A DNA stretch of 64,000 nucleotides from a virus. A program made the position numbers and the translations under genes. Positions 39,927 through 63,229 of the stretch are shown here, one piece after another. Position 1 is the stretch's first letter, and each line of letters opens with the position of its first letter. The notes under the pieces were generated by a model. The model searched no databases. It was given only the letters and a program-made list of their open reading frames with translations, and was not told where the DNA came from. The stretch is from positions 23,756 to 87,755 of the IMG/VR virus record IMGVR_UViG_3300045971_000431; one strand, 5' to 3'.

Positions 39927-40273
39927 ACTTCATCTTCACGGGTGACAGTACACACCCAACGCCATTCGCTCGGGCGAAAGTATTCATCAAGTGTTTCCAA
40001 GAATTTCTTGAGCTTTGCTAAGTCATCCAGCCCAAAGTGGACGAGACTAGACCCAAGCCGGCCTGGCTTATGTTTGATGATCTTTCGCGCGATGGTTATG
40101 ATGGCATCTTGATCAGCATCTGTCTGTTCAACTGAAAAGCCCTGTTTCACTTCGATATCGACTTCGAGATAATCACACATGAGCGAGAACTTAATGGCAG
40201 GCAGGATATCCTTCCCGCTGTGCACAAAGAACAGATTAGGATCATGCTCAGAAGCGATCTCGAAGAGCTTCAT
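39923..40273 (-). CDS. Probable internal head protein
   Basis: This 116-residue protein begins MKLFEIASEHDPNLFFVHSG, a weak form of the leader. A helix-strand body follows (DQDAIITIARKIIKHKPGRL). ATGA overlaps on both sides. Function unknown. Confidence 0.5.
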   Translation of the reverse strand: MKLFEIASEHDPNLFFVHSGKDILPAIKFSLMCDYLEVDIEVKQGFSVEQTDADQDAIITIARKIIKHKPGRLGSSLVHFGLDDLAKLKKFLETLDEYFRPSEWRWVCTVTREDEV

Positions 40274-40722
40274 ACCTTCTTGAACTCCCCGTCAACAGCG
40301 ATCATCTTCATGATGTCTTCACGTGATGCAACGACCACGTTGTTCTGTGTCTTGCCAGCGTAGGGCACGAAGGCATTCGTCTTCTTGCGATCGCTCTTGA
40401 CCTTGGCACGGGTGGCAGCAGCGTTCAGCGCGATGTTTAGGTAGTTCGCGGCAACTTCAGCATTGCGGGCAGCGTAACGCGGCTCCACAATCTCAGTGTA
40501 AGCCATCTGATTCTGGAAGGTGTCGTAAGCAGCATCGTAGACCTGGTCGATCTTCTTGTTGATCTCGATGTCTTCCTCATCAATCTCAGGAGCAGGAGCT
40601 TCAGATTGCAGAGCAGCAAGCTCGCCTTCTGTGGCTTGCTCGTACTCAACGATCTCGGTTGGCTGCTCAGTCTCAAACAGCTCATCGAGCGGGTTGACAA
40701 GCTTGGACTTCACTGGCATCAT
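40270..40722 (-). CDS. Terminase small subunit candidate (gp16-type)
   Basis: This 150-residue protein is acidic at the N-terminus (ELFETEQPTEIVEYEQATEG) and has a central helical pair (VYDAAYDTFQNQMAYTEIVE and RNAEVAANYLNIALNAAATR). It then has a basic linker and a C-terminal segment that may bind the large subunit. Length and layout agree with T4 gp16 (164 residues), the DNA-recognition ring. It is not next to the large subunit, which lowers certainty. It could instead be a small prohead or tail factor. Confidence 0.45.
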   Translation of the reverse strand: MMPVKSKLVNPLDELFETEQPTEIVEYEQATEGELAALQSEAPAPEIDEEDIEINKKIDQVYDAAYDTFQNQMAYTEIVEPRYAARNAEVAANYLNIALNAAATRAKVKSDRKKTNAFVPYAGKTQNNVVVASREDIMKMIAVDGEFKKV

Positions 40723-41180
40723 ACGGCTCTCCCCATTGCAGGTGGTTGTTTCTGGCGGATGCCGGCAAACATCGTCTTCTCGGTGACCACGCGGAAGGTG
40801 GCGCCGTGTTGCTCAGCAAAGATGGCCGCGGCTTTCCACTTGGCATCATTGACGGCAAGTGCCTGCAGATCCCGAGGTGTAGACTTTGGCGTGGCGACAG
40901 TTTCCTTGTATGGCTTGATCTCGACGATCTCCTTACGCAGGGAACCATCCTTGTGTTTATAGAGCACGACAATGTCAGGGAAGTAGCGGTGCACGCGCAT
41001 GTCGAGAGGACTCACATACGGAATGTACAGCTCTTCAGAACCCCACCGCAGAATTGCAGGGTTGGCATCAAGCCACTGAAAGAACCGCAACTCCCACGAA
41101 CTTCTCCACACCACATTGTTTACGTTACCAACGTATTTCTGTGGATTTTTAGGAATGAACCGTCCTCTTGCTGTTGCCAT
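40719..41180 (-). CDS. 4: Head-completion protein (gp4-type)
   Basis: This 153-residue protein has the blocks of T4 gp4 (50/65): FIPKNPQKYVGNVNNVVWRS, WELRFFQWLDANPAILRWGS and HRYFPDIVVLYKH followed by IVEIKPYKET. The fold is nuclease-like, with FPD...EIKP as the likely metal site. In T4 the protein finishes the head after packaging. It overlaps the candidate small terminase gene. Confidence 0.7.
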   Translation of the reverse strand: MATARGRFIPKNPQKYVGNVNNVVWRSSWELRFFQWLDANPAILRWGSEELYIPYVSPLDMRVHRYFPDIVVLYKHKDGSLRKEIVEIKPYKETVATPKSTPRDLQALAVNDAKWKAAAIFAEQHGATFRVVTEKTMFAGIRQKQPPAMGRAV

Positions 41181-41668
41181 TATGTCACCTCGAACAGCAT
41201 GTCAAATCTAAACGGATTTGGTTGCTTTAGTAACCACGCATTGATTGGATGATCTTCAGGTAGGTTGTTATCATACTGAAGCGAGCCCTTGCTTTCCAAA
41301 ATGCTCTGCGTGCGGCGCTCTATCATCTCGGCATACACATCAGCGGGCGCTTCATCATGCCATTTTTTGAGTGATTTTTCCCAAATGGCGTGTTTAGCTT
41401 CTGCTGTTACATGGGAAGCATTCATCCAACCATACGCTTGCTTGCGTTGTTCGTCTGTCATCAATGCATTAGATTTCTTCTTACTGATGGAGATATTCTT
41501 TTTGCGCTGTTCTTGGCCACCAGCCCACTGTTGTGATACTGCCTTTGCTGTCCGTTCCTTGAATTTAGCATAAGCAATAGGATCTGCCTTCAATCTAGCT
41601 TTGGCCAGCTTGGCTCCAGCAGAACGACGAGCACGCTCTTCCTCCGACATTATTCTTGTAGCCATCAA
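41180..41668 (-). CDS. NUMOD3-like DNA-binding protein, possible homing-endonuclease remnant
   Basis: This 162-residue protein has repeated motifs typical of DNA-binding modules of homing enzymes (MSEEERARRSAGAKLAKARL and KNISISKKKSNALMTDEQRK) and many aromatic-basic helices, but no GIY-YIG or HNH catalytic core. It sits exactly between two coupled genes with 4-base and 1-base overlaps, and its composition is more AT-rich than that of its neighbours. It may be an inserted module that lost its nuclease, or a real regulator. Confidence 0.55.
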   Translation of the reverse strand: MMATRIMSEEERARRSAGAKLAKARLKADPIAYAKFKERTAKAVSQQWAGGQEQRKKNISISKKKSNALMTDEQRKQAYGWMNASHVTAEAKHAIWEKSLKKWHDEAPADVYAEMIERRTQSILESKGSLQYDNNLPEDHPINAWLLKQPNPFRFDMLFEVT

Positions 41669-43116
41669 GAGACTCCAGGATCGGTGGAAGTGGTGTAGGC
41701 CGTAACTGTCGGTGCAGAGGTAGAAGTAGAGTCACCTAGCAAAGATCCACCGGTGCCACCAGTAGCAGAGCCGCCTGCACCACTATTGCCTGCACCCTTA
41801 CTGTTTGTGAAACCGGTCTTGAACTTCGAGAATGCATTAGAGATTCCATTGCCTGCGCTGGTAGCAGAAGATCCTAGGAAGTCTCGTGATGCAGCGCCAG
41901 TCAAGTTGCTGACAGAACCGCCCAGCACTCCGCCAAGACGCTGTCCAATGTCAGTGGCAAACTTGCCGTTACCGGCAATGGACTTGACTGCGCGATTCAC
42001 CGCAGTCGATGTTACGTTCTGTGCGCCTCGGGTGGCCGCACCCGAGAGAATGTTCACGTATGGATTGTTGCCTCCCGCCTTTGTGAGAATGCCAGCAGCG
42101 CCAGTTTTCCCATCGACAGACTTGCGGCCTGATAGAATGTCAGCAGGAGCACCTGTGATATTCTTGCCCACCACTTCATGGAAGGATGGCGAGTTGATTG
42201 TTGAGATGCCCTTGTTGTGGACCATCTCCATCCAGTCGTAGTCGAACTGCATGGTGAGCAGAGATGGATCAGAGCTGTCATGTGTCAGGTCATCGAGGTC
42301 GAATGACACCAATCGCGGGTTGATGAAGTCGTAGATGTTTTCCTTGACTGTGTTCTCACCATTGGGATCAGCTGCAGAATTGTCGAGGAACATCTGCTTG
42401 ATGCGAATGACGTCAATGGCGCCACCGAAGTCAGAGTTGATGACGCTTCGGTTGGCAGTGCCCTTAGTACCAAGAATGTTCTTGACGAATGACATGCCCG
42501 TTAGACCTGGTGCAGGCGTTGAGCTTGGCAGCAATCCAGTGTTGTCGCGTGCGAAGCCGCTACGAGTAACAGGTGAGTGAATGTACATCAGCAACCGGAA
42601 GAACTCGAACACCCGATTACCAACGTCATCCATGAACGTGATGGTCATTTCGCGGTGCTTGATTCGCTTCAGCGCTTTCGTGCGGAAGTTGTATTGATTG
42701 ACGTCATCTTCGTATTCGAAGTCAACCTTTGGGCGGTCAACAGTCTTGACCATGAAGGTGAACTTGCTGTCTTCTAGCAGATCAACGTGGGCGAACCCCT
42801 CGGCCTTGAGGCCATCAAGCACTGAGCGCTTGAACTTGAACTCGACCTTGAAGAGGAACTTGAGCTTGGGACGGTAGTCAGTGCCGACAAGACCTGCTGC
42901 GTAAGAGGTCGCGTCCCATGTCCGTGCGGGACGGGGCTTCTTGCCATCGGTAACACTGTCTGAAGCGCTGCCGCCAGGTGGCTTTGGCTTTCCCTTGATT
43001 GCACCGCGGACGAAATCCTCGACGCCATCCCCGATTTGCCCTGCACCCGTGCTCTGGACAGAACCAGTTGTCGACTTGAGAATCGACTTGAGGTCGTTGG
43101 TTGGTGATGTTGCCAT
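41665..43116 (-). CDS. Tube-like baseplate protein (gp54 or gp48 class)
   Basis: This 483-residue protein has a central tail-tube-like fold: LKFLFKVEFKFKRSVLDGLK, VKTVDRPKVDFEYEDDVNQY, REMTITFMDDVGNRVFEFFR and SLLTMQFDYDWMEMVHNKGI. T4 gp48 and gp54 use this fold to start the tube on the baseplate. A 160-residue Gly/Ala/Ser-rich C-terminus follows. It lies next to the tube gene. Which of the two T4 proteins it replaces cannot be told from motifs. Confidence 0.65.
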   Translation of the reverse strand: MATSPTNDLKSILKSTTGSVQSTGAGQIGDGVEDFVRGAIKGKPKPPGGSASDSVTDGKKPRPARTWDATSYAAGLVGTDYRPKLKFLFKVEFKFKRSVLDGLKAEGFAHVDLLEDSKFTFMVKTVDRPKVDFEYEDDVNQYNFRTKALKRIKHREMTITFMDDVGNRVFEFFRLLMYIHSPVTRSGFARDNTGLLPSSTPAPGLTGMSFVKNILGTKGTANRSVINSDFGGAIDVIRIKQMFLDNSAADPNGENTVKENIYDFINPRLVSFDLDDLTHDSSDPSLLTMQFDYDWMEMVHNKGISTINSPSFHEVVGKNITGAPADILSGRKSVDGKTGAAGILTKAGGNNPYVNILSGAATRGAQNVTSTAVNRAVKSIAGNGKFATDIGQRLGGVLGGSVSNLTGAASRDFLGSSATSAGNGISNAFSKFKTGFTNSKGAGNSGAGGSATGGTGGSLLGDSTSTSAPTVTAYTTSTDPGVS

Positions 43117-43140
43117 TAGATCTGCCTGCAGAAGGTGTTC

Positions 43141-43148
43141 TATTTATG
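43141..43148 (-). promoter_or_regulatory. Late promoter CATAAATA for the baseplate-to-internal-protein unit
   Basis: Minus-strand CATAAATAGA, 24 bases before ATG 43116. Confidence 0.65.
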
Positions 43149-43164
43149 ACCACCCACAAACAAC

Positions 43165-43186
43165 AAGGGGCTCCGAAGAGCCCCTT
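43165..43186 (-). terminator. Hairpin terminator after the tube gene
   Basis: AAGGGGCTC and GAGCCCCTT form a perfect 9-base-pair stem with a 4-base loop, followed on the minus strand by GTTGTTTG. Confidence 0.75.
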
Positions 43187-43208
43187 GAGATTGGAAGTGC
43201 GATGCGTC

Positions 43209-43802
43209 TTAGGCGTTGTTGCCGCCGAGAGCAGTGCCGTAGCCAGCGCCGGATTCGATGTGACGTGCGTGGTCAAAGCGGATGGACATCGTGATCGTGG
43301 CAGCTTCAGAAGCCGAGTAGTCACGGTCACCGAAGTCGACAGAAGCGAAGTAGCAACCTTCGAGCATCCACGATTGGACAACGCCTTCGTTACCGTCGAG
43401 CTGGTCGATGGTGGCAGCGAACTTGTAGTCAGAACCGGTAGCAGCGGTGTTGAGCCAACGGCCGTCAAGGTCAGCACCGATCAGGCGCTGCATTGTCTCG
43501 GCTTGGTTCTTGATGACAGTGGCTGCGAGGCCAGTGATGTCGTCTTCAACGGTGACGTTGATTGGTTCCCACGAGTGCTTGCCAGCGATGTAGGCCACCG
43601 AGTTGTAGCGGTGAAGCGCCACTTCTTCGTAGGTCAGATTTGGCAGCGTGATGGTCGTGACCTGCATTGTGAGGTCCTTGCCATTCGTACCAGATACCAG
43701 AGCACCGATGTTCTTGAACGTGATGCGGAACTTGTTCTTGAGACGTGGGTGCAGGATACCTGGACCTGCGCCTGGGATACCGAAGTTGCTGAGATTTGCC
43801 AT
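43209..43802 (-). CDS. 19: Tail tube protein gp19
   Basis: The 197-residue protein builds the inner tube through which DNA passes. It has the tube fold with LKNKFRITFKNIGALVSGTN, LTMQVTTITLPNLTYEEVAL, HSWEPINVTVEDDIT and, near the end, SEAATITMSIRFDHAR. T4 gp19 is 163 residues. It lies between the sheath region and the baseplate tube initiator, with its own late promoter and terminator, as for an abundant protein. Confidence 0.9.
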   Translation of the reverse strand: MANLSNFGIPGAGPGILHPRLKNKFRITFKNIGALVSGTNGKDLTMQVTTITLPNLTYEEVALHRYNSVAYIAGKHSWEPINVTVEDDITGLAATVIKNQAETMQRLIGADLDGRWLNTAATGSDYKFAATIDQLDGNEGVVQSWMLEGCYFASVDFGDRDYSASEAATITMSIRFDHARHIESGAGYGTALGGNNA

Positions 43803-43838
43803 GAGTGCTCCTGCTGAGAGGGAGTTGTTCTTACCACC

Positions 43839-43846
43839 TATTTATG
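43839..43846 (-). promoter_or_regulatory. Late promoter CATAAATA for gene 19
   Basis: Minus-strand CATAAATAGG, 36 bases before ATG 43802. The leader contains CTCC that could pair with the GGAG ribosome-binding site. Confidence 0.65.
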
Positions 43847-43876
43847 CTTGCGGCATGTATGGGCGACGTTTCTGGG

Positions 43877-44440
43877 TCAGACCTTCTTACCGTCCTTGTA
43901 GATCGTGTCGAAGGCTTTCACAATAAAGCGCTCTGATCGCTCAGCAAAGACGCCTCGTTTGAGAATAGCAATGCGCTCTGGGGTCAAGTCACGAGCTCGA
44001 AGACCATGCTGAAGGAAGCAATGGACAGGAACTGGTACATCACCATTGGCCATCTTGACCGCAAGCATACGAGCCCGGCCCTCGTGACCTGTGATCTTGG
44101 CTGGACCCTTGTCTTCATCGCCAAGGCTGATGTTGAAGAACGGAATACCGACTGCGTAGCCCTTGAGGATCATCTTGGCAATGCCCTTGGCACGTTCGGT
44201 TGATTCATCTTCAAGTGCTAGCTCAGCAAAGGCCGAAGGCTTCAACATCGTCACAAACCCGTGGTAGTAGACAGACTGGTTGAATGGCACTGAACCTAGA
44301 CCGTCCTTCGCTGAGAACGTGACTTCGCCGATGTGGTAGTTGTCTTCGGCAAGGGATGGATCCCAGGGAGGAACATCGCCCAATTGTTTGGCGTAGATGG
44401 TGCCTTCTGCTTCTTGAAGGAATTGCTTGAATGTCTTCAC
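43877..44440 (-). CDS. Probable internal head protein (capsid-targeting peptide)
   Basis: This 187-residue protein begins MKTFKQFLQEAEG. Beyond it, YHIGEVTFSAKDGLG, IPFFNISLGDEDKGPAKITG and HEGRARMLAVKMANGDVPVP followed by VHCFLQHGLRARDLTPERI resemble a ParB-like or ADP-ribose-type fold; the HEGRAR segment recalls Alt-like or ParB-family proteins. I cannot name it with confidence. Its first gene in the unit is also an internal-protein candidate. Confidence 0.65.
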   Translation of the reverse strand: MKTFKQFLQEAEGTIYAKQLGDVPPWDPSLAEDNYHIGEVTFSAKDGLGSVPFNQSVYYHGFVTMLKPSAFAELALEDESTERAKGIAKMILKGYAVGIPFFNISLGDEDKGPAKITGHEGRARMLAVKMANGDVPVPVHCFLQHGLRARDLTPERIAILKRGVFAERSERFIVKAFDTIYKDGKKV

Positions 44441-44733
44441 GAAATGGGGTTCCCGTGTGTGATGCCATTCTTCCTCATGATTGGCTTGAGATGCTGAATG
44501 ACGGCTTCAACCTCGTCGTCCCATTCAGCATCAGTCTCTACTTGTCCAAGGACGGGCTCGAACAAAAGATCCCAGGCATCAGAACTTACCTCTGTGGCCG
44601 GGATATCGCCCTCCCACCAACGGGCCGCAGATTCAGCTTCGCCTTTGGACAGTCCTAGTTGACGAAACACGAGCTCGATCGGCATGCTGCCGAGAACATC
44701 GTATTCTTCCAGAAACTGTTTGAATGTCTTCAT
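44437..44733 (-). CDS. Probable internal head protein (capsid-targeting peptide)
   Basis: This 98-residue helical protein begins MKTFKQFLEEYDVL. A late promoter octamer ends 5 bases before its ATG, so its mRNA would be leaderless. ATGA overlap with the next internal-protein gene. Function unknown. Confidence 0.7.
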   Translation of the reverse strand: MKTFKQFLEEYDVLGSMPIELVFRQLGLSKGEAESAARWWEGDIPATEVSSDAWDLLFEPVLGQVETDAEWDDEVEAVIQHLKPIMRKNGITHGNPIS

Positions 44734-47061: not shown

Positions 47062-47457
47062 TCACTTTGGTTTGTCGACCCAGATGCTCCACAGGATGTG
47101 GGTGCCTCTGCCCAAGCCCTTGCGCTTCAGCACGTCTTCCCAGGAACGCCAATCTTCACCAGTGTAAACGCCGGGATGTTCCTCTTTGAAGGTCACTCCT
47201 CGTGGCTTGAAGGCAGCAACGATGGCACGCTTCATCATGTCTAGCTCGAACAATAGATCGTCACGTTCGATGCGTCGCTTGATACCGTAAAAGCGAACGG
47301 TGTATTCTACCTTGCCATTTGGGACAGCAAGGTTTGGCCCGTAGTTGACCATCACCTGGCCCAGCCCCATCTGTTGGCCGATCTGCTCACCAGCCACATG
47401 AAGCGAATCTGGTTCAAATCGAGGGGCTTCAGCCAGGAATTCCTTGAAGGTGATCAT
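47062..47457 (-). CDS. Probable internal head protein (capsid-targeting peptide)
   Basis: This 131-residue protein begins MITFKEFLAEAPRF, a clear internal-protein leader. The body mixes strands and helices (PNGKVEYTVRFYGIKRRIER and DDLLFELDMMKRAIVAAFKP). It is coupled by ATGA to the next internal protein and is the last gene of the gp15 unit. Confidence 0.7.
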   Translation of the reverse strand: MITFKEFLAEAPRFEPDSLHVAGEQIGQQMGLGQVMVNYGPNLAVPNGKVEYTVRFYGIKRRIERDDLLFELDMMKRAIVAAFKPRGVTFKEEHPGVYTGEDWRSWEDVLKRKGLGRGTHILWSIWVDKPK

Positions 47458-47855
47458 GCCGGGCCTGCCACCACTTTCACTGTGATCGTGATCCGTTTGG
47501 TGCCAGCTTTGACATCAGCCTTGGCAAGCGGGTTGTGTTTCATTGAGCGATGAAGCTGAATGTTGGGGCCATCCCAATTGACAGCTACGAAGCCTAGAGC
47601 ATCCATGTGCTTGATGAGTTGCTTCTCTGCCAATTTGGTCTGAAACACCAGATCTGCCTTGTCAGTTTCACCGGTGGTCCAGCTCAGGTAGATGAGGCTG
47701 TTGTCGAATGCGTCAGGACCGACTGTTACCTTTTGACCGATGGCCTGGGTTAGCTGTTGGGTTAGCTCACGCCAATGAGTGTGGCCAGAATCCATCATCG
47801 TGGTAGCCACGTCGATACCACCATGCGCCTCGAGAAACTGCTTGAAGGAGATCAT
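47454..47855 (-). CDS. Probable internal head protein (capsid-targeting peptide)
   Basis: This 133-residue protein begins MISFKQFLEAHGG. It then has a helix (HWRELTQQLTQAIGQKVTVG) and strands ending ADVKAGTKRITITVKVVAG. ATGA overlaps couple it to gene 15 and to the next internal protein. Confidence 0.65.
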   Translation of the reverse strand: MISFKQFLEAHGGIDVATTMMDSGHTHWRELTQQLTQAIGQKVTVGPDAFDNSLIYLSWTTGETDKADLVFQTKLAEKQLIKHMDALGFVAVNWDGPNIQLHRSMKHNPLAKADVKAGTKRITITVKVVAGPA

Positions 47856-48742
47856 GGCAATGGTTCTGGCGGGAAGGGAACTGGCCCCTCAGGTGGCTTG
47901 ATCTTCTCGATAGTTGTTGGGATCGAATGCATCTCGATTGGGTCTACCGTACCGTTCGCATTGCTGTCAGAGCCAACAGACATTGTCGGTGGGTTGGTGG
48001 TCGTGTCAACCACGATCTTCGCAAGAGGATCCCCAAACGGCGTGAGGTGCCCGTCTGCATCCACTTCATTCACCACCATCGAACCAAGGCTGGCGATCTG
48101 GATGATGACCTTACGGACCAGGTCGTCTTTCACGCCCATTGGGATGCTCAAGTAGATTGGCACTTCAAAGGACAGGGTCCAGACGATCATGCGACGATCG
48201 GTAGCCGAGGGATAGTTCTCCTCGTTGGCGATATCGGTCAGCTCCACCTTCGTGATACGGGTCCAGTCAAACTCACCATCAGACTTCTGGATCTGGAGGT
48301 CAGGGTTGAAGAGGACCAGGATCTGCTCAAGGATCTGGTGCATCTGTTGGGTGTTCGAGGCGTAGATCGATAGTTCGATCTGTGCGTTGTACGGGATTGG
48401 CATGGCCCGCTTGACGACGGTCAGATCTTCAGGGAAGACCCCGCCGGTCTTCATAGTGACACGCTGGTCCATCAGGCCTGGATTGCGGCGGCGTTCAGGC
48501 GCCAGTGAGAGACCCTGGAGATAGGCTGCCATTGCAGGCAGACTGAACATCTTGTTCTGCGTGTTGCCTGCCATGATGGCTGCGACCACACGATCCTTGT
48601 TGGCAACGACCACGGGCACAGTGATGTACTGCTCCTCATCGCACTCGCCCTTACCGGTCTTGACCTGCAGACCGTAGAAGATGGAGACGAACTGAAGCAG
48701 ATACTGCCGAAGCTGCGCTTGGTAAGTGAAGTGATTGATCAT
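47852..48742 (-). CDS. 15: Tail sheath stabiliser / completion protein gp15
   Basis: The 296-residue protein caps the tail and joins it to the head. It matches T4 gp15 in its blocks: YITVPVVVANKDRVVAAIM, PIPYNAQIELSIYASNTQQM, HQILEQILVLFNPDLQIQ and RMIVWTLSFEVPIYLS. It ends with a proline-rich tail, as in T4 (272 residues). A late promoter octamer ends 4 bases before the ATG, so the mRNA may be leaderless. Confidence 0.85.
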   Translation of the reverse strand: MINHFTYQAQLRQYLLQFVSIFYGLQVKTGKGECDEEQYITVPVVVANKDRVVAAIMAGNTQNKMFSLPAMAAYLQGLSLAPERRRNPGLMDQRVTMKTGGVFPEDLTVVKRAMPIPYNAQIELSIYASNTQQMHQILEQILVLFNPDLQIQKSDGEFDWTRITKVELTDIANEENYPSATDRRMIVWTLSFEVPIYLSIPMGVKDDLVRKVIIQIASLGSMVVNEVDADGHLTPFGDPLAKIVVDTTTNPPTMSVGSDSNANGTVDPIEMHSIPTTIEKIKPPEGPVPFPPEPLP

Positions 48743-48745
48743 TTG

Positions 48746-49201
48746 TTATTTACGGTCTTCAGGATCGATGGAGCTTAGATCGATATGATCGAATCTGAAC
48801 TCGAGATCAACGCGGAACGGATCTTTCTCTGTGCCTGGATCCCCAGCGATCATGTCACCATTTGTGACAACGCCGGTCAAGTCAGTGTTGACGCGCAATC
48901 CCTTAAAGTATGGAGCAAGCAGCTTGATGAAGAGCTTGGGGAAGAAGAGAGCAAGAGTTTCAGGGTCGTAGACGGTCTTACCAATCTTCTTGGCGCCCAC
49001 ATGAATGTGAATGCGAAGGTACCGATCGTGGGGCTTCTGCCCATTCCAGATGATGATCGTCACATCTTCCCTATGAATCTTCTGCTTCTTCAGCTGTTCC
49101 CAAATCAGGTCTTCAACGATGCGCTCGAATGCTTGCAGCGCATTGTGTACCACGTGTCTCTTGAAGCCCATCTCACCGAGAAACTGCTTGAACGTGATCA
49201 T
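48746..49201 (-). CDS. Probable internal head protein (capsid-targeting peptide)
   Basis: This 151-residue protein begins MITFKQFLGEMGFK. It has VTIIIWNGQKPHDRYLRIHI followed by HVGAKKIGKTVYDPETLALF, and resembles its upstream neighbour (VWSDLRDEDPDDRILFANIL), so both may be one duplicated family. The stop TAA lies in the gene 15 late promoter. Confidence 0.65.
   Translation of the reverse strand: MITFKQFLGEMGFKRHVVHNALQAFERIVEDLIWEQLKKQKIHREDVTIIIWNGQKPHDRYLRIHIHVGAKKIGKTVYDPETLALFFPKLFIKLLAPYFKGLRVNTDLTGVVTNGDMIAGDPGTEKDPFRVDLEFRFDHIDLSSIDPEDRK
48747..48754 (-). promoter_or_regulatory. Late promoter CGTAAATA for gene 15
   Basis: Minus-strand CGTAAATA-ACAA-ATG; overlaps the stop codon of the upstream gene. 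Confidence 0.55.
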
Positions 49202-49572
49202 AGCATGCCGTCGTAATCAGGAACACGGTAGCGACCGTAGACGGCTTCACCTGATGGTGACGTGGAGGAGTTAACAGTCTCGAAGATCTCTTCAACGTAT
49301 CGACCGAAATACTCAGTCAGCTTCTTGCGCATCACCTTCTGCAGGATGTTGGCGAACAGAATGCGGTCATCAGGATCTTCGTCTCGAAGATCAGACCATA
49401 CCCGAATGCTCTTGCCATTCCCGTTACTGTTGGCATCTTCTGGCGTTCGGTTCAAGTCGATCTGGTAACGGCGCACCCCGACGAGATCGGCGACCTCACG
49501 CTTGATGTCAATGAGCTTCACTCGGAACTGCTCATGCCAACCTTCAGCGAGGAAGTCTTTGAACGTGATCAT
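49198..49572 (-). CDS. Probable internal head protein (capsid-targeting peptide)
   Basis: This 124-residue protein begins MITFKDFLAEGWHE. It carries KSIRVWSDLRDEDPDDRILF, like the next gene. ATGA overlaps both neighbours. Function unknown. Confidence 0.65.
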   Translation of the reverse strand: MITFKDFLAEGWHEQFRVKLIDIKREVADLVGVRRYQIDLNRTPEDANSNGNGKSIRVWSDLRDEDPDDRILFANILQKVMRKKLTEYFGRYVEEIFETVNSSTSPSGEAVYGRYRVPDYDGML

Positions 49573-51440
49573 AGCTTGCTCGTAATGTCTCGCGTGTCAT
49601 CCAAGTTCAGGATGGCCAATTGTGATGGGCGGTGGGCAGAACGTTCGTCTCGACGGTCTGTCTCGACATAGATCCACTTGTTCTTGACGACACTGAACTT
49701 GTAGAGACGCGCAGCAATCTTCAGCTTTGGATCGTAGTTGAGACGGAAGAACTGACCATCAGTTGCAGACGAAACGTCAGGCAGCTTGAACCCTTCAAGA
49801 TAGGCAAGACCGTCTGGTGGCAGACCATCCTCAGTGTACGGGCCAACACCGTCATACGTGCCAGGTGCGCCAAAGCGGTTCGTACCTGAGCGAGTCTCAC
49901 GAACATTCGTGCCAGTCTCGGGCACCCTCGCCACAGCTTCAGCATGGTTCGCTTCAGCGGCGGTTAGAGGCGCTGTCTGGATCTGTTCGATGCCTTCGAA
50001 GAATGAGCCATCGTCGACGACATACTTCTGCGTGTCAGCCGTTCCGAGAATGTCTCGGTGTTCCTGTGAAGGAATAAGCTGCTGAGCCATGAACTTGTAG
50101 ATGACCGGCTTCCAGCCTGTGGTGTAGCCATCAGCGGCCCAACCCACGTCAGTGACTTCGAGGAACTTCCGGATCGGCTTCAGATTGTGGTCGTACTGCA
50201 TCTGGCTCGGCACTTCAAGCACGTCACCAACAACGATCGGGCGACCCAACAGAGTGATCATCGTAGCGAAGGATGTCGTGAAGGAGTAGATGTCAGCGAC
50301 TTGGAACCCGAACTTGGAAAGATCGGACTGGCTATCGAACGGCTGGTAGGCAGTCAGTAATTGGATGGAGGCGTTCGCATAGTCACGATCGCGGTTCTCC
50401 ATGAAGAGCGGGTCTTGGATGTTGTCGAGGCGCGTGGCTTGGAAGTCAAACATCTCCAGCTTTTCGACAGCCCAAGGATCACCAGTCAGGAAGCCACCGA
50501 ACAGCAGAGGGACGATGCGCCAGTAACGGGCAGGTGCTGATTGCTTCAGACTGATGAGCACTACTGGAACATCAGGCACGTTCACAACATCCACACGGTA
50601 CCAATCGAGTTCCACCTGAGCCGAGAACATGTCGCCTGCAACAAACGCAGTAGAACCAGCGGTGATCTTGAAGGATCCACGTGGTGAGTTGTACTGTGTG
50701 CCTACGTTGGCTACACCGAGAAGCTCAGTACCAGAGGAAGATGTGTACATCACCTGGAAGGTGGCAGCAGTCAGGGCAATTGCCATGAAGACGCCAGGCT
50801 TGGAGTCATATCCCTGAATGTAGCCACCAAGAGAACCATTGCCGGTGCCCGTGAACTGCACCTTGGCTGGGTCGATGCGGTAGCCACCATCAGAACGGTC
50901 GATGCGGATCTGGCGAACTCGGGTAGCCGACAAGGCACCTTGAGTGAGTCGGATCGTCGTGATGTGTTGGGCAGCTGCTACACCCGGACCATTCTCTGGT
51001 TGACCATAAGAGGTCAGGCGAATGCCGAAATCGTAGCCAATGTAAGCAGGTGTCGAGGTCACCGCAAGACCTGTCTCGACACTGGTCCATGCTGTGGCAA
51101 GTGCATCGAAGGCATTTGCTGGAGTACCGCTTGATGCGATTGCTTGACCATTCCCGGTCAGATCAATCAGCTTCCCCTGTTCATGGACACCAAGCAGCTT
51201 GAAGACATTGACTGGTGCACCTGAGATGCTGAGTGCTTCAGCGGCCAGACTTTCTTGGTAGTCAGTCTCAGGGGTAGCGCACTCGCCCTGCGTGATCTTC
51301 ATGTCGCCGATGCAAAGCTCGGGCGGATTGTACGGATTAGACGGGGCCGGTGGGGTTGCAGGCAGGCCACCATGTGGCTGACTGTTGAGGGAACCGGCGC
51401 CGTCTGGGCAACTCGTGATTGGGAGCTTTGGAACTGTCAT
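49569..51440 (-). CDS. Neck protein candidate (gp14-like) with long N-terminal extension
   Basis: In this 623-residue protein, the C-terminal part (from about residue 330: MFDFQATRLDNIQDPLFMEN, LSKFGFQVADIYSFTTSFAT, LLGRPIVVGDVLEVPSQMQY and FLEVTDVGWAADGYTTGWKP) recalls gp14-type neck proteins of T4-like marine phages. The first 330 residues are a Thr/Gly/Ala-rich beta region with a discoidin-like pattern and are an addition. Position between gp13 and gp15 supports gp14. Not certain. Confidence 0.5.
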   Translation of the reverse strand: MTVPKLPITSCPDGAGSLNSQPHGGLPATPPAPSNPYNPPELCIGDMKITQGECATPETDYQESLAAEALSISGAPVNVFKLLGVHEQGKLIDLTGNGQAIASSGTPANAFDALATAWTSVETGLAVTSTPAYIGYDFGIRLTSYGQPENGPGVAAAQHITTIRLTQGALSATRVRQIRIDRSDGGYRIDPAKVQFTGTGNGSLGGYIQGYDSKPGVFMAIALTAATFQVMYTSSSGTELLGVANVGTQYNSPRGSFKITAGSTAFVAGDMFSAQVELDWYRVDVVNVPDVPVVLISLKQSAPARYWRIVPLLFGGFLTGDPWAVEKLEMFDFQATRLDNIQDPLFMENRDRDYANASIQLLTAYQPFDSQSDLSKFGFQVADIYSFTTSFATMITLLGRPIVVGDVLEVPSQMQYDHNLKPIRKFLEVTDVGWAADGYTTGWKPVIYKFMAQQLIPSQEHRDILGTADTQKYVVDDGSFFEGIEQIQTAPLTAAEANHAEAVARVPETGTNVRETRSGTNRFGAPGTYDGVGPYTEDGLPPDGLAYLEGFKLPDVSSATDGQFFRLNYDPKLKIAARLYKFSVVKNKWIYVETDRRDERSAHRPSQLAILNLDDTRDITSKL

Positions 51441-52027
51441 GCGATTGGATCCGTAATGACAAGTTGGCGATCATCGGGATCTACCATGACGTTGCCATCA
51501 TGTAGGTCAGTGCCGTCTTTGATTTTTGATAGGAACAGCGCGATTGCTTTCACGTCTTCGTCTTGCGTATTGGTTGCTAGAACTTCCCAATCGTCGGGGC
51601 TCCAGTCTTCCAGTGATGTTACTCGCCGCACCATCTTCGTTAGTTGTTTCGGTTTGAGATTTAACGGTGCCAGCGCCTGGGTTTCCCAATCACGCGCAAG
51701 CTTCTTGATTTCGGCAGCTGATGCATCGCGCAGCTTCTTCATGAAAACGATGCCGATCCTGTTGCCATCCTCGTCCTTGGTGTATTTCACGTCAGCAATC
51801 TTAGGCACAAATCGATTGTCTTGGTTGCGGCGGCACCACCTCAGGTAACGCTGGTATTTGGTATCTGATGCAGGATCGAAGACCTTCACCACCATGTTGG
51901 TATAAGCAGGTGATTGAAACACGTGTGCGTAGTAACCCGCGCCAAGCGTCTCGATGCGCTTCATCTGACGCAGCCGTTTGATGTAGTGCTTCGCCCGTTC
52001 CTCGAAAAGCAATTCGCATACTTGCAT
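51437..52027 (-). CDS. Protein kinase-like fold with capsid-targeting peptide
   Basis: This 196-residue protein begins MQVCELLFEERAKH, an Alt-like capsid leader. Then come kinase signatures: a Gly-rich loop LGAGYYAHVF (about 28-37), the ATP lysine in NMVVKVFD (K48), a hinge GIVFMKKL, the catalytic loop TDLHDGNVMV (D174, N179) and a metal-binding Asp in VITDPI (D193). Length is minimal for the fold and the C-lobe is short. T4 injects its Alt enzyme this way; here a kinase could modify host targets at once. Substrate unknown. Confidence 0.65.
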   Translation of the reverse strand: MQVCELLFEERAKHYIKRLRQMKRIETLGAGYYAHVFQSPAYTNMVVKVFDPASDTKYQRYLRWCRRNQDNRFVPKIADVKYTKDEDGNRIGIVFMKKLRDASAAEIKKLARDWETQALAPLNLKPKQLTKMVRRVTSLEDWSPDDWEVLATNTQDEDVKAIALFLSKIKDGTDLHDGNVMVDPDDRQLVITDPIA

Positions 52028-52028: not shown

Positions 52029-53906
52029 TCAACCGATCAAGAATGAGACGTTGCCCTTGCCGACCAGACCACCGTATTCGTAGTTGAGCAGCTCTTCCTT
52101 CAGCTCGGTCATGTCTTGACGGGCTTCAGAGACCAGCATTTCGCCGTTAAGGTTGATCGGACCATTAGCTCCTGGAGTACCAGAGCTAAACTTTGAACGA
52201 ATCATTCCAAGCTGCATCTTGCACTCAGCAAGTGCCCAGTTCTGCATGTACTGCTTGCAGTACCGATCGAGCAAGAGTTCCTGCTCGGTGCGTTCCATGT
52301 AGCATTCGAGAATGACCTTCTCATTGCGTGCAATACGGCGAGTGATCATGAGCTCACGTGATGGCTCATCCCATAGGAAGGTCAAGTCACCAGCGAAGAT
52401 CCGCTGGAAGTCCTCAGACAGCGAGTGCATCATGTGGATGGACAGGATGTCGGTGTAGCCTGACGAGTAGTACTGGTTCAGGAACGTCTGGAAGTAGATG
52501 TTGCTGTCCCAGTTCAGGGAGTTGGCACCAAGAATGTTCAGGCGGTGGATCTTGTTGACAGCAACGATGCGATCAGTTCCATCAGTGGCTGAGTTCAGGT
52601 AGTAGAGTTGCTGACCTTCCATGACCGTGTACATCACGTACTTCATCGTGTAGGCAGCATCTGACAACTGGCGGTAGTTGTCGAGAGCGTTGTCGATGGC
52701 AACGTTGAAGTGTTCTTCCTTCAGTTCGACGCACTGCACGGGCCAACCGAGCTGGGTCTTCAGCACCTTGATGAGACGAAGACGTTCATCGTAGGAACCG
52801 TCGGTACCGATAGATGTCTTGTCTGTAGATGGAGTGCCTTGCTGGTCAGTGTTTGCTTGGATCCAGGTGGAGCCGTTGAAGACGTTCAGCACCTTCGTCG
52901 AGGTGTTGTAGAAGAGTTGACCAAGATACGGAGCGGCCAATGGCACCGACTCAGCGTAGATTGCGGTCGTGAATGCTGGCGTCAGCGGTGGCTTGTTGAA
53001 GAGAGAATTGGCTGATGTTGGGTAGACCCAAGAACTACCATCCCAGAACTGAGCACGTTGCAGTGAGTAGTTCCAGATGAAGTCGCCTACAGCCGGAGTT
53101 TCTGGCACCTTGATAACGCCTGCAACCGTGCCCAGCGGAATCCACGTTGGGCCTGGAGCCATGAAGGAAAGGTTCGTTGCATCACAGGTAATCCATTTGG
53201 TGCCATCAAAGACCTTCAGCTGGTTCAAGCCTGTGTAGAAGTAGACTTGCCCCAGGGTGCCCGGGTTGTAGGGGCCCGAGATGATGGCATCTGCACGGGT
53301 GGGAGTCCACTGCGAACCATTCCAGTACTGGACCAGGTTCATGCCTCTGTCGTGGTAGACAAAGCCAGGAGATGGGGAGGTCGGCGCTTCTGGCAGAGAT
53401 GGGATGTTGCCAGTGTAGGACGAGCTGTCCTTCTCGACGCGAGATGCTTCCAGTGGGTAGGACTGGATGCCGATCGGGTAGTACTGGAGAACGTTCGTGC
53501 AAGCGTGCACCGACGCGTAGTAGAGAGTGTTCGCTACTGTGTTGGTGACCGTGACCGTGAAGGACGAGAAGCCGGTGTCGATGTTTGCCACACCTGGCAG
53601 CGGGTTGTTCAGAATGCCAGAGTAGAACCCCACGACGTGCGCGCCATCAGCTCCTTCGATACGAGAAGCTGGGACCGCCAAATCGGTGCTTGCGGTGTAC
53701 TGGGTACCATCGTCTGGATAGTTGACCGAGCTGACAGCTCGATCATTGATCGTGATGACTGCGCCATCAACCGTCTCGAGAACTGTCGGGTAGGTGACAG
53801 TGAGAGCGATCGTGGTTGGTGTTGGACGGGAGATGGCCAGCGTGAACTGCCGAGCTTCAATCCAAAGGTCATGGGTTGTCTTTGCTGTGAGATCTGATGC
53901 GGCCAT
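52029..53906 (-). CDS. 13: Neck protein gp13 with fibre-like N-terminal extension
   Basis: In this 625-residue protein, the C-terminal 240 residues match gp13: CVELKEEHFNVAIDNALDNY, RIVAVNKIHRLNILGANSLN, MITRRIARNEKVILECYMER and DMTELKEELLNYEYGGLVGK. T4 gp13 is 309 residues. The first 370 residues contain four repeats of the pattern VYHDRGMNLVQYWNGSQW, VYFYTGLNQLKVFDGTKW, IWNYSLQRAQFWDGSSW and LFYNTSTKVLNVFNGSTW. This suggests a neck appendage fused to the structural domain. Confidence 0.7.
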   Translation of the reverse strand: MAASDLTAKTTHDLWIEARQFTLAISRPTPTTIALTVTYPTVLETVDGAVITINDRAVSSVNYPDDGTQYTASTDLAVPASRIEGADGAHVVGFYSGILNNPLPGVANIDTGFSSFTVTVTNTVANTLYYASVHACTNVLQYYPIGIQSYPLEASRVEKDSSSYTGNIPSLPEAPTSPSPGFVYHDRGMNLVQYWNGSQWTPTRADAIISGPYNPGTLGQVYFYTGLNQLKVFDGTKWITCDATNLSFMAPGPTWIPLGTVAGVIKVPETPAVGDFIWNYSLQRAQFWDGSSWVYPTSANSLFNKPPLTPAFTTAIYAESVPLAAPYLGQLFYNTSTKVLNVFNGSTWIQANTDQQGTPSTDKTSIGTDGSYDERLRLIKVLKTQLGWPVQCVELKEEHFNVAIDNALDNYRQLSDAAYTMKYVMYTVMEGQQLYYLNSATDGTDRIVAVNKIHRLNILGANSLNWDSNIYFQTFLNQYYSSGYTDILSIHMMHSLSEDFQRIFAGDLTFLWDEPSRELMITRRIARNEKVILECYMERTEQELLLDRYCKQYMQNWALAECKMQLGMIRSKFSSGTPGANGPINLNGEMLVSEARQDMTELKEELLNYEYGGLVGKGNVSFLIG

Positions 53907-60037: not shown

Positions 60038-60457
60038 TTATAGGACGAACGTGATGTTCTCTGCGATGGGCCCAAGGTCAACTGAGGCAACACCTGCCTT
60101 GAGCTTGTCCGCGTTGACTGGGAATCCCGCCTGCTTCAGAAGACTGATCTCGTAGATAGCGGTGTCCTTGCGATACTCTTGGTCGAACAGCCAGTCAGTT
60201 GAGTCGAGGTGGAGCTTCTTGCAAAGTGCCCATACTGAACGCATTTTCGCGCGCTGCTTGGGCGCGGTCTCTGACGTGATCAGCGCCACAAAGCAAGGAT
60301 TCTTATCGTCAAGGTGGATGTTGATCTCGTAGCCCAGGAAGTCTGTGCCAATCTCTTCGAACATGATGCCGATGTACTCAGCGAAGAACTTGCCGATCAC
60401 AAAGGACAACACGTTGTCGGGAACGATCTCATTCTCGAAGAGCTCTTTGACTCGCAT
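60038..60457 (-). CDS. Probable internal head protein, paralogue of 60459-60890
   Basis: This 139-residue protein begins MRVKELFENEIVPDNVLSFV. It shares LFENExxPxxVL...G-F-AE with its neighbour. The leader matches the Alt-type targeting peptide. It is in one unit directly after the major capsid gene. Body unknown. Confidence 0.65.
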   Translation of the reverse strand: MRVKELFENEIVPDNVLSFVIGKFFAEYIGIMFEEIGTDFLGYEINIHLDDKNPCFVALITSETAPKQRAKMRSVWALCKKLHLDSTDWLFDQEYRKDTAIYEISLLKQAGFPVNADKLKAGVASVDLGPIAENITFVL

Positions 60458-60458
60458 A

Positions 60459-60890
60459 TCAGTAGTTCACTTCCATGAAGGATGGCGGTTCACCGAGATG
60501 CTTCTTGAAAGCGTCCTGCATTGCATCAACGCCCGCAAGCCCGAAAGCATGCATACCCGGAAACCGCACGTCGATCGTATGTGAATACACATCTTCACGG
60601 CTGATGTCGATGTCCAGGCTGTAGTCTTCATCAAGCCCGTACTTTGCAGCCAGATTGGTAATCTTGCCTCGCAGAGCTGGTAGTTTGTTAGGCGTCTTCT
60701 TGAAGGTCAACATGATGTTGGCACTTGTGTAGTTCGAGTCGAGGTTAACTTCGAGCGCCTTCGTGTCAATCTCAGGGCCAGCGAATCGTCTAGCGAACAG
60801 TTGCACAAGCTCAGCATAGAACATGCCAGTCGCATGCCCCAGAACCTTGGGCGGCATGAGTTCGTTCTCGAAGAGGTGTTTGAGGAGCAT
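60459..60890 (-). CDS. Probable internal head protein, paralogue of 60038-60457
   Basis: This 143-residue protein begins MLLKHLFENELMPPKVLGHA. A late promoter octamer ends 5 bases before the ATG, so its transcript is predicted to be leaderless. The body has alternating strands and helices (NLAAKYGLDEDYSLDIDISR). Function after injection unknown. Confidence 0.65.
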   Translation of the reverse strand: MLLKHLFENELMPPKVLGHATGMFYAELVQLFARRFAGPEIDTKALEVNLDSNYTSANIMLTFKKTPNKLPALRGKITNLAAKYGLDEDYSLDIDISREDVYSHTIDVRFPGMHAFGLAGVDAMQDAFKKHLGEPPSFMEVNY

Positions 60891-60972: not shown

Positions 60973-62307
60973 TCAGGAGAAAACGACGTTCTTGACGAGG
61001 ATGCGAGAATAGTAATCTGCCGAATTGCCGAGCGACGTGCCCACGTTCGTGAAGGTGGCCTTGCCGTAACGTGTCATCAGAGACACAGCTGGCATGAACG
61101 TGTTTGCGTCCATAACCACACCGGTGCTCATCAGAGGAATGTATGGGCAGTAGAAGTAGCCAGAGTCGAGTTCCGAAGAACCGCCCTTGTAGCCGATCAG
61201 GATGTCTTCACCAGCGTCGCCCATTGCGTTGACCATGCCGACTGGCGAACCAGAGCTGTCAAGCTGCCAAGCGTCCTGGAGACCCCAGTTGTACGAGTAG
61301 ACCTTCATCTGGCCATTCAGCGTACCGACCAGCTTGTTGCCGGTTGGGTCAGAGAACGAGCCGGAGACGGCAGGTGCGAACACCGACTTCGAAGCGGACT
61401 GGAGGAGGGAAGTGATCAGGTGACCACCAACCAGCCAGTTGCCAGGTCCACGACGGGTCTTGGCGCCGATTTCGTTGGCAACCTTGTTGATCAGGATGCC
61501 GAGGTGGGCATAACGGTCGCCGAGGTAGTTCGGAGCGAAGCCACCTGGGTTGGCAGCCATTGCAGCCATGTCGAACGTAGCAACGGTAGCAGCCAGGTTC
61601 AGAAGGTCAGTCAGCACTTCGTTGTCGATTTCGTGCGCGATCTGGGCCGACAGAGCAGCGGTCAGCTCGGACTCGAGGTCCATGCCGTGCTGTGCTGACA
61701 AGTCCTGAGCGGCTTCCATCGTCCAACGTGCCTGCAGCTTGCGCGAGCCGGCAGTGATGGTTTGCTTGAGAACGGAGAGGCGCATTGACTTGCCGCCGAA
61801 GCCTTCGTAGTTGCCAGACAGGTTGGCCTGTGGGTTGGCAGTCGAAGCATCAGGAACGCCGAGGCCGAGAGACGTTGCATCAGCCAGTGCTGGTGGGTAC
61901 ACAGCTGGGTTGGTAGCAGCAGCAGACGTCGAGTAGAAACGCTTCATCTTGCTGTTGTTTGCCCAGACTTCGTCGCCAGCGGCGATGTCGTTCTGTGGTG
62001 CGCCATTGCCGTCAGCTGCTTCCGAGAAAGCGAAGCGCAGCGAGTACACCAGGCCGACTGGACCGGACATTGGCTGGAGGCCAACGAGGTCAGAAGAGAT
62101 GGTGCCTGGGAGGATACGGCGGATCATCGGAATGACGATCTTCTGGAAGTTGCTCACGGCGCCCATGTTGGTGGACGTTGGGCCAGCGGTTTCCAGCAGA
62201 TGCTGCTTCTGGTTTTCCAGAAGGGTTTCGACGACTTGCTTCTTGGTACCTTGGAGGCCTTCGAGCAAAGCCTCTTTGGTTTCTTGCCAGTTTTCAATCA
62301 GTTGCAT
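60973..62307 (-). CDS. 23: Major capsid protein gp23
   Basis: The 444-residue subunit of the head shell. It has the T4-type N-terminal propeptide (MQLIENWQETKEALLEGLQG to about residue 40) with cleavage-type LLE sites, then NFQKIVIPMIRRILPGTISS, DLVGLQPMSGPVGLVYSLRF, and a conserved end (FMPAVSLMTRYGKATFTNVG). T4 gp23 is 521 residues. It is preceded by the scaffold gene and followed by a strong terminator, as for the most abundant virion protein. Confidence 0.95.
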   Translation of the reverse strand: MQLIENWQETKEALLEGLQGTKKQVVETLLENQKQHLLETAGPTSTNMGAVSNFQKIVIPMIRRILPGTISSDLVGLQPMSGPVGLVYSLRFAFSEAADGNGAPQNDIAAGDEVWANNSKMKRFYSTSAAATNPAVYPPALADATSLGLGVPDASTANPQANLSGNYEGFGGKSMRLSVLKQTITAGSRKLQARWTMEAAQDLSAQHGMDLESELTAALSAQIAHEIDNEVLTDLLNLAATVATFDMAAMAANPGGFAPNYLGDRYAHLGILINKVANEIGAKTRRGPGNWLVGGHLITSLLQSASKSVFAPAVSGSFSDPTGNKLVGTLNGQMKVYSYNWGLQDAWQLDSSGSPVGMVNAMGDAGEDILIGYKGGSSELDSGYFYCPYIPLMSTGVVMDANTFMPAVSLMTRYGKATFTNVGTSLGNSADYYSRILVKNVVFS

Positions 62308-62335: not shown

Positions 62336-63229
62336 TTACTTGGTAATGCCTGCGAGGCGGCGAAGCTGAGTCATGCTCTCAGAAAGAGCAGCTGCTTTTG
62401 CCTGGGTACTATCGGTGCCGGTTGGCTCACCAGTAACGACAGTGGTCTTTGGAACGGTCTTGCCTTCAGTCAGAGTAGCTTGCTTTGCAGCAGGAGCTTC
62501 TTCCTTCAGGATGCGGCCGATGAAGAACTTGTAGGACTCTTCAAGACGGTCAGTGTCCACATTGCGGAGGACCATGGCCATTTGTTCGCGCTTCTTGCCG
62601 GTCAGAGGGGAGAGAATCTTCTCCATCTTTGACTCACGAACCATCTTGTTCAGCGCTTCTTCACGTTCGCTCAGACGCTTTTCGGCGTCTTGCAGCTTGC
62701 CCTCGGCAACTTGCAGCTTCGATTGAACTGCCGTCTCGTCGACGTAGCTCTTGGCATATTCGCCAACGAAGGCTTCGAACATCTTGCGGCCGAACTCATT
62801 CTGCTTGACGGTGTCGAGGTCCTCGCGGAGCTCTTCCATTTCGGCAGTCAGGCGCATCTCGAAGAAGGTGTCGATCTTGTCGACCAGCTGGTCAAGTTCG
62901 CTAGCAACTTCGCCAGCAAGCTTGTGCTTCTCTTCCACGAGCTTCTCAGCGAACTCGGCTTCGAGGTCGCGGAAGCGTTCGATGTCGCCACGCAGTTCAG
63001 TGATTTCCTTGGTGAGAGCTTCTGCGACGAAGGCGTCAACCTTGCCGACGAGCTCTTCACGCTCCATAAGCCATTGCTCCGACAGTTGGAGGCGAACTTC
63101 GTTGGAGACTTCTTCACGGACTTGCGTCTTGAATTGGTCGACCGAAGTGGTCCACTGTTGGGAGATTTCAGCTTTCGATTCCTCGCTAAGCAGCTCTGAT
63201 TCGAGCAGCTTCTTCAGGATTTCGTCCAT
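62336..63229 (-). CDS. 22: Prohead scaffold core protein gp22
   Basis: This 297-residue, highly charged, almost entirely helical coiled-coil protein starts MDEILKKLLESELLSEESKA at ATG 63229 (AAGGAGA upstream); the longer frame is unsupported. Blocks VDETAVQSKLQVAEGKLQDA and FIGRILKEEAPAAKQ fit scaffold cores, which are cut to peptides by the prohead protease. T4 gp22 is 269 residues. It directly precedes the capsid gene. Confidence 0.85.
   Translation of the reverse strand: MDEILKKLLESELLSEESKAEISQQWTTSVDQFKTQVREEVSNEVRLQLSEQWLMEREELVGKVDAFVAEALTKEITELRGDIERFRDLEAEFAEKLVEEKHKLAGEVASELDQLVDKIDTFFEMRLTAEMEELREDLDTVKQNEFGRKMFEAFVGEYAKSYVDETAVQSKLQVAEGKLQDAEKRLSEREEALNKMVRESKMEKILSPLTGKKREQMAMVLRNVDTDRLEESYKFFIGRILKEEAPAAKQATLTEGKTVPKTTVVTGEPTGTDSTQAKAAALSESMTQLRRLAGITK

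What the first reader, a model, noticed from the sequence alone, without database searches (positions are those of the whole stretch)
51437..52027. Possible injected protein kinase
Seen: a capsid-type leader (MQVCELLFEE) followed by kinase-like Gly-rich loop, ATP lysine (K48), DLHDGN catalytic loop and VITDP metal site in only 196 residues. Known: T4 Alt is packaged and modifies host RNA polymerase on entry; T7 makes a kinase early. Inferred: this phage delivers a kinase with its genome, a combination I do not know of.
Basis: partly seen in the sequence, partly recalled or inferred. Interest (0 to 1): 0.88.

Follow-up and report, generated by a model that had tools for sequence, protein, structure and literature searches.

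The report
Packaged mini-kinase of a jumbo phage
A large T4-related bacteriophage encodes a stripped-down protein kinase, related to the one phage T7 makes early in infection, that carries the short tag T4-type phages use to load proteins into their heads, so it is probably injected ready-made with the phage DNA to modify host proteins at once.

Summary
The ORF is real: minus strand, 51437-52027, 196 aa. It is a kinase by three tests. PHROG 15752 (T7 gp0.7 kinase) matches at E=9e-17. An AlphaFold model (pLDDT 85.8, pTM 0.79) finds only protein kinases and aminoglycoside phosphotransferases among its top 50 PDB hits. G31, K48, D174, H176, N179 and D193 are invariant across 16 diverse relatives. 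It stops two residues after the DFG-equivalent Asp, so the rest of the C-lobe is missing. The leader MQVCELLFEE is conserved in the close kinase clade and contains the L/I-x-E motif of T4 prohead protease gp21. It belongs to a leader class on 16 of 65 window genes (null 4.4%), several nearly identical to T4 capsid-targeting sequences. In eight further sampled records the gene sits in the head-neck operon between gp13-like and gp14-like genes, an interval that elsewhere is empty or holds other leader proteins or GIY-YIG-like ORFs. T7-like early kinases lack the leader. Best reading: a packaged and ejected version of the T7 gp0.7 kinase family. Packaging, cleavage, ejection and activity are inferred. 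Injected C-lobe-less kinases were already predicted in polyvalent phage proteins, so this is a new variant of a known kind.

The parts
51437..52027 (-). mini protein kinase, T7 gp0.7 family, 196 aa
   Evidence: ORF; PHROG 15752 E=9e-17; AF2 model and PDB fold search; tblastn to T7-like kinases
51998..52027 (-). N-terminal capsid-targeting-type leader MQVCELLFEE (residues 1-10)
   Evidence: conserved in the clade; disordered in model, pLDDT<50; p=0.0035 against T4 IP/Alt leaders
52001..52003 (-). E9, predicted P1 of a gp21-type L-x-E cleavage site (L7-F8-E9)
   Evidence: L/I-x-E specificity of T4 gp21 (PMC9026906); motif kept at residues 6-10 in nearly all leader-bearing relatives; cleavage not tested
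51929..51946 (-). Gly-rich loop LGAGYY (residues 28-33)
   Evidence: G31 invariant, G29 at least 90%; beta1-beta2 in model
51884..51886 (-). K48, ATP-binding lysine on beta3
   Evidence: invariant in 16 relatives
51491..51508 (-). catalytic loop D174-L-H-D-G-N179
   Evidence: D174, H176, N179 invariant; profile aligns it to haspin's DLHWGN
51449..51451 (-). D193, DFG-equivalent metal-binding Asp
   Evidence: invariant; protein ends shortly after it
52029..53906 (-). upstream neighbour: gp13-like head-tail adaptor; its stop is 1 nt from the kinase start
   Evidence: PHROG 211 head-tail adaptor Ad2, E=2e-41; junction sequence
49569..51440 (-). downstream neighbour: virion structural protein in gp14 position; its start overlaps the kinase stop (ATGA)
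   Evidence: PHROG 11591 virion structural protein, E=5e-25
47062..49572 (-). block of leader-bearing small proteins (MITFKEFLAEA, MISFKQFLEA, MITFKQFLGE, MITFKDFLAE) around the gp15 tail-sheath stabiliser (47852-48742)
   Evidence: gp15 Pfam E=6e-40
33720..44733 (-). region with further leader-bearing small proteins (e.g. MKTFKQFLAEA 34007-34300, MKVTELFEEES 36021-36359, MKTFKQFLQEA 43877-44440)
60038..60890 (-). two leader-bearing proteins (MRVKELFENE, MLLKHLFENE) next to the capsid gene
60973..62307 (-). gp23-like major capsid protein
   Evidence: Pfam Gp23 E=6e-87
62336..63262 (-). gp22-like scaffold/core protein
   Evidence: PHROG 10922 E=5e-22 (function unknown), weak PHROG 237 scaffold match; 70% identity to the ORF upstream of the capsid gene in L042

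Best explanation
The gene encodes a minimal Ser/Thr-type protein kinase of the T7 gp0.7 family, converted by a T4-type capsid-targeting leader into a packaged, ejected host-takeover enzyme. It is made late with the neck genes. The leader docks it into the prohead core, a gp21-type protease cuts after LFE (E9), and the mature kinase (about 187 aa) stays in the head with the DNA. On infection it enters the host with the genome and phosphorylates host proteins before any phage gene is expressed. By analogy with T7 gp0.7 and JSS1_004, likely targets are RNA polymerase, RNases and nucleic-acid-targeting defence proteins. Shown here by computation: kinase family, predicted fold and intact active site; conserved leader; conserved head-neck location; recurrence of the leader class in this genome. 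Inferred: packaging, cleavage, ejection, catalytic activity and targets.
For: Kinase: PHROG 15752 (T7 gp0.7) E=9e-17 over residues 15-195, and all 16 aligned relatives match it. Model pLDDT 85.8, with beta1-beta3, alphaC and beta4-beta8 in kinase order. Top 50 PDB hits are all kinases or APHs, best E=1.6e-5; top viral hits include T7-like phage kinases. Catalytic residues invariant. dN/dS 0.26-0.30 in relatives. Delivery: conserved disordered leader with L/I-x-E. Same leader class on 16/65 window genes, p=2e-8, several near-identical to T4 IPII/III MKTYQEFIAEA. The first 10 residues of IPIII suffice for packaging, and gp21 cuts at L/I-x-E (PMC9026906). Gene between gp13-like and gp14-like genes in the window and eight further sampled records, leader present in each. 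gp21-type protease in all 10 relatives searched; this contig ends just upstream of the scaffold gene. Cultured Rhizobium phage RHph_I1_18 carries a family member with an IP-like leader. T7-like early kinases lack the leader. Function: T7 kinase phosphorylates RNAP beta' and RNases (PMC4858673); JSS1_004 phosphorylates and disarms defence proteins (PMC12345140).
Against: No proteomic or biochemical data for any leader-bearing member. The kinase leader alone resembles T4 leaders only moderately (p=0.0035; most relatives p=0.04-0.5). Glu at the predicted P1' position is unusual next to T4 sites (A/S in IPII/III), so cleavage may fail or be partial. No conserved alphaC Glu was seen in the alignment, and the C-lobe after beta8 is absent, so protein-substrate binding is unexplained. 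The T7 C-terminal shut-off domain is absent, and JSS1_004 is reported to need both domains against Dnd (PMC12345140). Sequence similarity to T7-like kinases is low (25-30% identity). TM-scores to PDB kinases are low (0.33-0.47).
Confidence: 0.74

Rival explanations
1. The kinase is packaged in the prohead core but acts during head morphogenesis, phosphorylating scaffold or other core/neck proteins, rather than in the next host.
For: Encoded between two neck genes and closely coupled to them; T4 IPIII has a documented link to head assembly (PMC9026906).
Against: Family relatives in T7-like phages are early host-takeover enzymes next to the RNA polymerase gene. Syntenic relatives lack the kinase in this slot or have another gene there, so it seems dispensable for head assembly.
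Confidence: 0.12
2. It is an ordinary gp0.7-like kinase expressed in the infected cell and not packaged; the N-terminal resemblance to capsid-targeting sequences is incidental.
For: A short leader of low information; most relatives' leaders score p=0.04-0.5 against T4 leaders; L113, inside the clade, lacks the leader and lies away from the neck genes.
Against: Leader conserved across a clade whose members are only about 31-49% identical to the query overall. The leader class is shared with many unrelated proteins of the same genome, the leader is disordered in the model, and the gene sits in the head-neck operon in the window and eight further records.
Confidence: 0.13
3. It is a small-molecule phosphotransferase (APH-like) or a pseudokinase acting as a binder, not a protein kinase.
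For: Weak Pfam APH match, E=0.0023, below the curated cut-off; APH(2'') among PDB fold hits; truncated C-lobe; no conserved alphaC Glu seen.
Against: Near full-length match to the T7 protein-kinase family; catalytic residues invariant; T7-like members of the family are experimentally protein kinases (PMC4858673, PMC12345140); purifying selection.
Confidence: 0.1

Closest known systems
T7 gp0.7 / JSS1_004 kinase (PHROG 15752)
   Same: Same kinase core and motifs over residues 15-195; presumed role in redirecting the host and disarming defence.
   Different: T7-like members are encoded beside the phage RNA polymerase gene, have no capsid leader, and mostly carry about 110-250 further residues after the DFG-equivalent Asp (in T7 the shut-off domain); this one ends shortly after it and lies among neck genes.
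T4 internal proteins IPI-III and Alt (CTS-packaged, ejected proteins)
   Same: About ten-residue N-terminal leader with an L/I-x-E cut site, head gene context, gp23/gp21-type head in relatives.
   Different: The known T4 activities are a restriction inhibitor (IPI) and an ADP-ribosyltransferase (Alt); no kinase is among them.
Polyvalent-protein kinases (Iyer et al. 2017, PMC5512222)
   Same: Predicted to be injected; kinase core lacking the C-terminal subdomain, active site kept.
   Different: Domains mainly of large multidomain proteins of Verrucomicrobia/Chlamydia/Bacteroidetes (pro)phages with their own signature inserts; no T4-type CTS described.
Kinase of Salmonella phage Munch / Klebsiella phage fENko-Kae01
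   Same: Small kinase of the same family in a jumbo phage.
   Different: No leader; lies in a block of small genes of unknown function; not flagged by LC-MS/MS in the fENko record although another gene nearby is.

Membership tests
T7 gp0.7 protein kinase family (PHROG 15752) | significant profile match over the kinase core | tested here: met
   E=9.1e-17, protein 15-195 to profile 59-237 of 260; 16/16 aligned relatives
T7 gp0.7 protein kinase family (PHROG 15752) | Gly loop, ATP Lys, D-x-H-x-x-N catalytic loop, T-D-P metal motif | tested here: met
   invariant or near-invariant columns
T7 gp0.7 protein kinase family (PHROG 15752) | C-terminal host shut-off domain (full-length T7 gp0.7 architecture) | tested here: not met
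   ends 2 residues after TDP; T7 has 145 more. A member of the kinase-domain family, not of the two-domain gp0.7 architecture
T7 gp0.7 protein kinase family (PHROG 15752) | Ser/Thr phosphotransfer activity | not testable with these tools
   needs an in vitro assay
Protein kinase fold | N-lobe (beta1-beta5, alphaC) and C-lobe up to beta8 | tested here: met
   AF2 model, secondary structure order and Foldseek
Protein kinase fold | activation segment, APE and alphaF-alphaI of the C-lobe | tested here: not met
   protein ends at residue 196, two after D193-P194
T4-type CTS-packaged internal proteins | about 10-residue N-terminal capsid-targeting leader resembling IP/Alt | tested here: met
   p=0.0035 for this leader alone; genome-wide class p=2e-8; conserved in clade
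T4-type CTS-packaged internal proteins | L/I-x-E processing site for gp21-type protease | tested here: met
   L7-F8-E9; kept in nearly all leader-bearing relatives
T4-type CTS-packaged internal proteins | gp21-type prohead protease in the phage | tested here: inconclusive
   present in all 10 relatives searched; this contig ends before the expected position; only a divergent paralog at 15312-15719
T4-type CTS-packaged internal proteins | presence in virions and ejection into the host | not testable with these tools
   needs virion proteomics or a delivery assay
Polyvalent-protein kinases (PMC5512222) | domain of a large multidomain injected protein with the family's signature inserts | tested here: not met
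   stand-alone 196-aa protein; signature inserts themselves not compared

The most novel reading that the evidence does not exclude
A branch of T4-related jumbo phages recruited the T7 gp0.7-type kinase into the virion by giving it a capsid-targeting leader, so that an active kinase phosphorylates host polymerase and defence proteins from the moment of DNA entry. The gp13-gp14 interval is a cargo slot where injected effectors are exchanged.
Probability: 0.55. Interest if true: 0.8.

Novelty: new variant of a known kind. Interest (0 to 1): 0.63.

Why it matters
The protein-modifying enzyme known to enter with T4 DNA is an ADP-ribosyltransferase, Alt. An ejected kinase would add reversible phosphorylation to the pre-expression arsenal and place a defence-disarming activity ahead of phage transcription, when restriction enzymes act. 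It would also revise the published view that gp0.7-like kinases are confined to T7-like phages (PMC12345140), and it offers an unusually small natural kinase. The claim can be tested directly in a cultured phage, Rhizobium phage RHph_I1_18.

Tried and rejected
Single-sequence pattern search of viral contigs with the kinase found nothing, and a profile from six divergent sequences could not be searched; searching with neighbour proteins and with a close-clade alignment worked. Genome contigs gave no relatives, so there is no sign of a cellular or prophage source among those genomes at that sensitivity. Phmmer against PDB found nothing relevant; only the profile and the fold search did. Pfam alone would have missed it (APH below cut-off). 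The first AF2 model (6 sequences, pLDDT 79) gave borderline PDB hits; the 16-sequence model settled it. Considered and rejected: chance motif co-occurrence; a frameshift-truncated larger kinase (close relatives end at about the same point, and the next gene starts in a 4-bp overlap). Pfam found no confident function for the other leader-bearing proteins scanned. Literature searches for a packaged phage kinase returned nothing on point.

Full report
Where it lies. The window is positions 23756-87755 of an 87,755-bp viral contig. The capsid protein is gp23-like (Pfam Gp23 E=6e-87), closest among named phages to Xanthomonas jumbo phage XacN1 (49% identity) and Stenotrophomonas phages CM1/RAS14 (46%). 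Capsid relatives in IMG/VR include contigs of 290-350 kb. The contig is therefore probably a fragment of a T4-related jumbo phage.

The gene. The ORF is on the minus strand, 51437-52027, 196 aa. It starts 1 nt after the stop of a gp13-like head-tail adaptor gene (PHROG 211, E=2e-41) and its stop overlaps the start of a virion structural gene in gp14 position. This is tight coupling inside a presumably late head-neck operon.

Kinase. Residues 15-195 match PHROG 15752, the T7 gp0.7 protein kinase, at E=9e-17. tblastn finds 72 phage records, mostly T7-like kinases, at up to about 30% identity. In a 16-sequence alignment G31, K48, Y58, N71, P75, D174, H176, N179, M181, D193 and P194 are among the invariant positions. 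The profile aligns the catalytic loop DLHDGN with haspin's DLHWGN, which points to D174 as the catalytic Asp and N179 as the metal Asn. The AlphaFold2 model (pLDDT 85.8, pTM 0.79) has beta1-beta3, alphaC, beta4-beta5, helices, the catalytic loop and beta7-beta8 in kinase order. All of its 50 best PDB hits are protein kinases or aminoglycoside phosphotransferases, best E=1.6e-5. TM-scores are low (0.33-0.47), partly because the rest of the C-lobe is missing: the protein ends two residues after D193-P194. Its close relatives end 2-6 residues after it, whereas T7 gp0.7 continues for 145. No conserved alphaC Glu is visible. dN/dS of 0.26-0.30 between close relatives shows purifying selection.

Leader. 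MQVCELLFEE is disordered in the model. In the close clade it reads roughly M[KQR]vxeL[IL]xEE and is kept although overall identity to this protein is only about 31-49%. Sixteen of 65 window genes carry a leader with [LIF]-x-E near residue 10, against 4.4% of internal methionine contexts (p=2e-8; the pattern was chosen after looking). A test fixed by T4 leaders alone (IPII/III MKTYQEFIAEA, IPI MKTFKEFTST, Alt MELITELFDE) puts seven window N-termini at p<3e-4. The kinase leader scores p=0.0035, and its relatives are mostly weaker one by one. Thus the leader class is well established; the membership of this kinase in it rests on conservation and context. In T4 the first ten residues of IPIII suffice for packaging and gp21 cuts after L/I-x-E (PMC9026906). 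A gp21-type protease (PF03420) occurs in all ten relatives searched; the present contig stops before the place where it is expected.

Context elsewhere. Kinase homologs lie between the gp13-like and gp14-like genes in the window phage, L007/L008, L018, L036, L038, L042, L106, L108 and L111, each with the leader; L007 and L008 appear to be the same sequence. In other relatives the same interval is empty (L012, L013, L016, L022, L048, L071; XacN1 also lacks the kinase there), or holds ORFs that look like GIY-YIG nucleases (L009, L023, L045, L050, L077) or other leader proteins (MKTFKQFLSEG and MQTFKQFLSES in L017). This looks like an exchangeable cargo slot. In the tree, jumbo-phage kinases separate from T7-like ones by a long supported branch, and the leader is clustered. 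L113, within the clade, lacks the leader and lies elsewhere. The cultured Rhizobium phage RHph_I1_18 has two adjacent kinases, the second with an IP-like leader (KSFSEHIAES), followed by another leader protein. The Munch and fENko-Kae01 kinases lack the leader and lie among small genes of unknown function.

Mechanism. Shown: family, predicted fold, intact active site, conserved leader and location. Inferred: late synthesis, docking in the prohead core through the leader, cleavage after E9, ejection with the DNA, and phosphorylation of host proteins before phage gene expression. T7 kinase phosphorylates RNA polymerase beta', RNase III and other proteins (PMC4858673). JSS1_004, a gp0.7 homolog, phosphorylates many host proteins and disarms several defence systems (PMC12345140). 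T4 internal proteins are thought to act against first-response defences (PMC9391042). A defence-disarming or transcription-redirecting role at entry is therefore the most likely, without direct evidence.

Novelty. Both halves are known: gp0.7-type kinases and T4-type CTS delivery. Injected C-lobe-less kinases were predicted in polyvalent proteins (PMC5512222). The combination of a CTS with a stand-alone gp0.7-family kinase, conserved in a jumbo-phage clade, was not found in the papers searched, and it contradicts the stated restriction of such kinases to Autographiviridae. I rate it a new variant of a known kind.

Noticed in passing
window 33720-49572 and 60038-60890 (minus strand): About a dozen small proteins with T4 IP/Alt-type leaders (MKTFKQFLAEA, MITFKEFLAEA, MKVTELFEEES...) and bodies without confident Pfam matches: a large candidate set of ejected proteins.
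   Followed up: partly
window 49569-53906; loci L009, L012, L017, L023, L034, L045, L050, L077: The interval between the gp13-like and gp14-like genes is a variable slot: empty, kinase, other leader proteins, or ORFs resembling GIY-YIG nucleases (motif seen by eye).
   Followed up: partly
window 15312-15719 (minus strand): Short divergent relative of the gp21-type prohead protease (PF03420 E=3e-7, below cut-off) away from the capsid genes; catalytic residues not obvious by eye.
   Followed up: no
L002 1866-2567 (Rhizobium phage RHph_I1_18 EVB91_003): Leader protein (MISFKSHLNES) directly after two kinases, with a LYRG...ESWSDD pattern suggestive of an ADP-ribosyltransferase; Pfam gave no confident match.
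   Followed up: no
L097/L102/L104/L105 (record G011), L120, L122, L002: Kinases of this family occur as adjacent or tandem paralogs, up to four places in one record, some with leader-like starts.
   Followed up: no
L134 2893-3600 (Stenotrophomonas phage RAS14): A divergent family member in a cultured phage with a leader-like start (MKLIDLFEDQQ).
   Followed up: no
window 62336-63262: The scaffold ORF's first start codon is TTG, but relatives suggest the true start is the internal Met of MDEILKKLLESEL.
   Followed up: no
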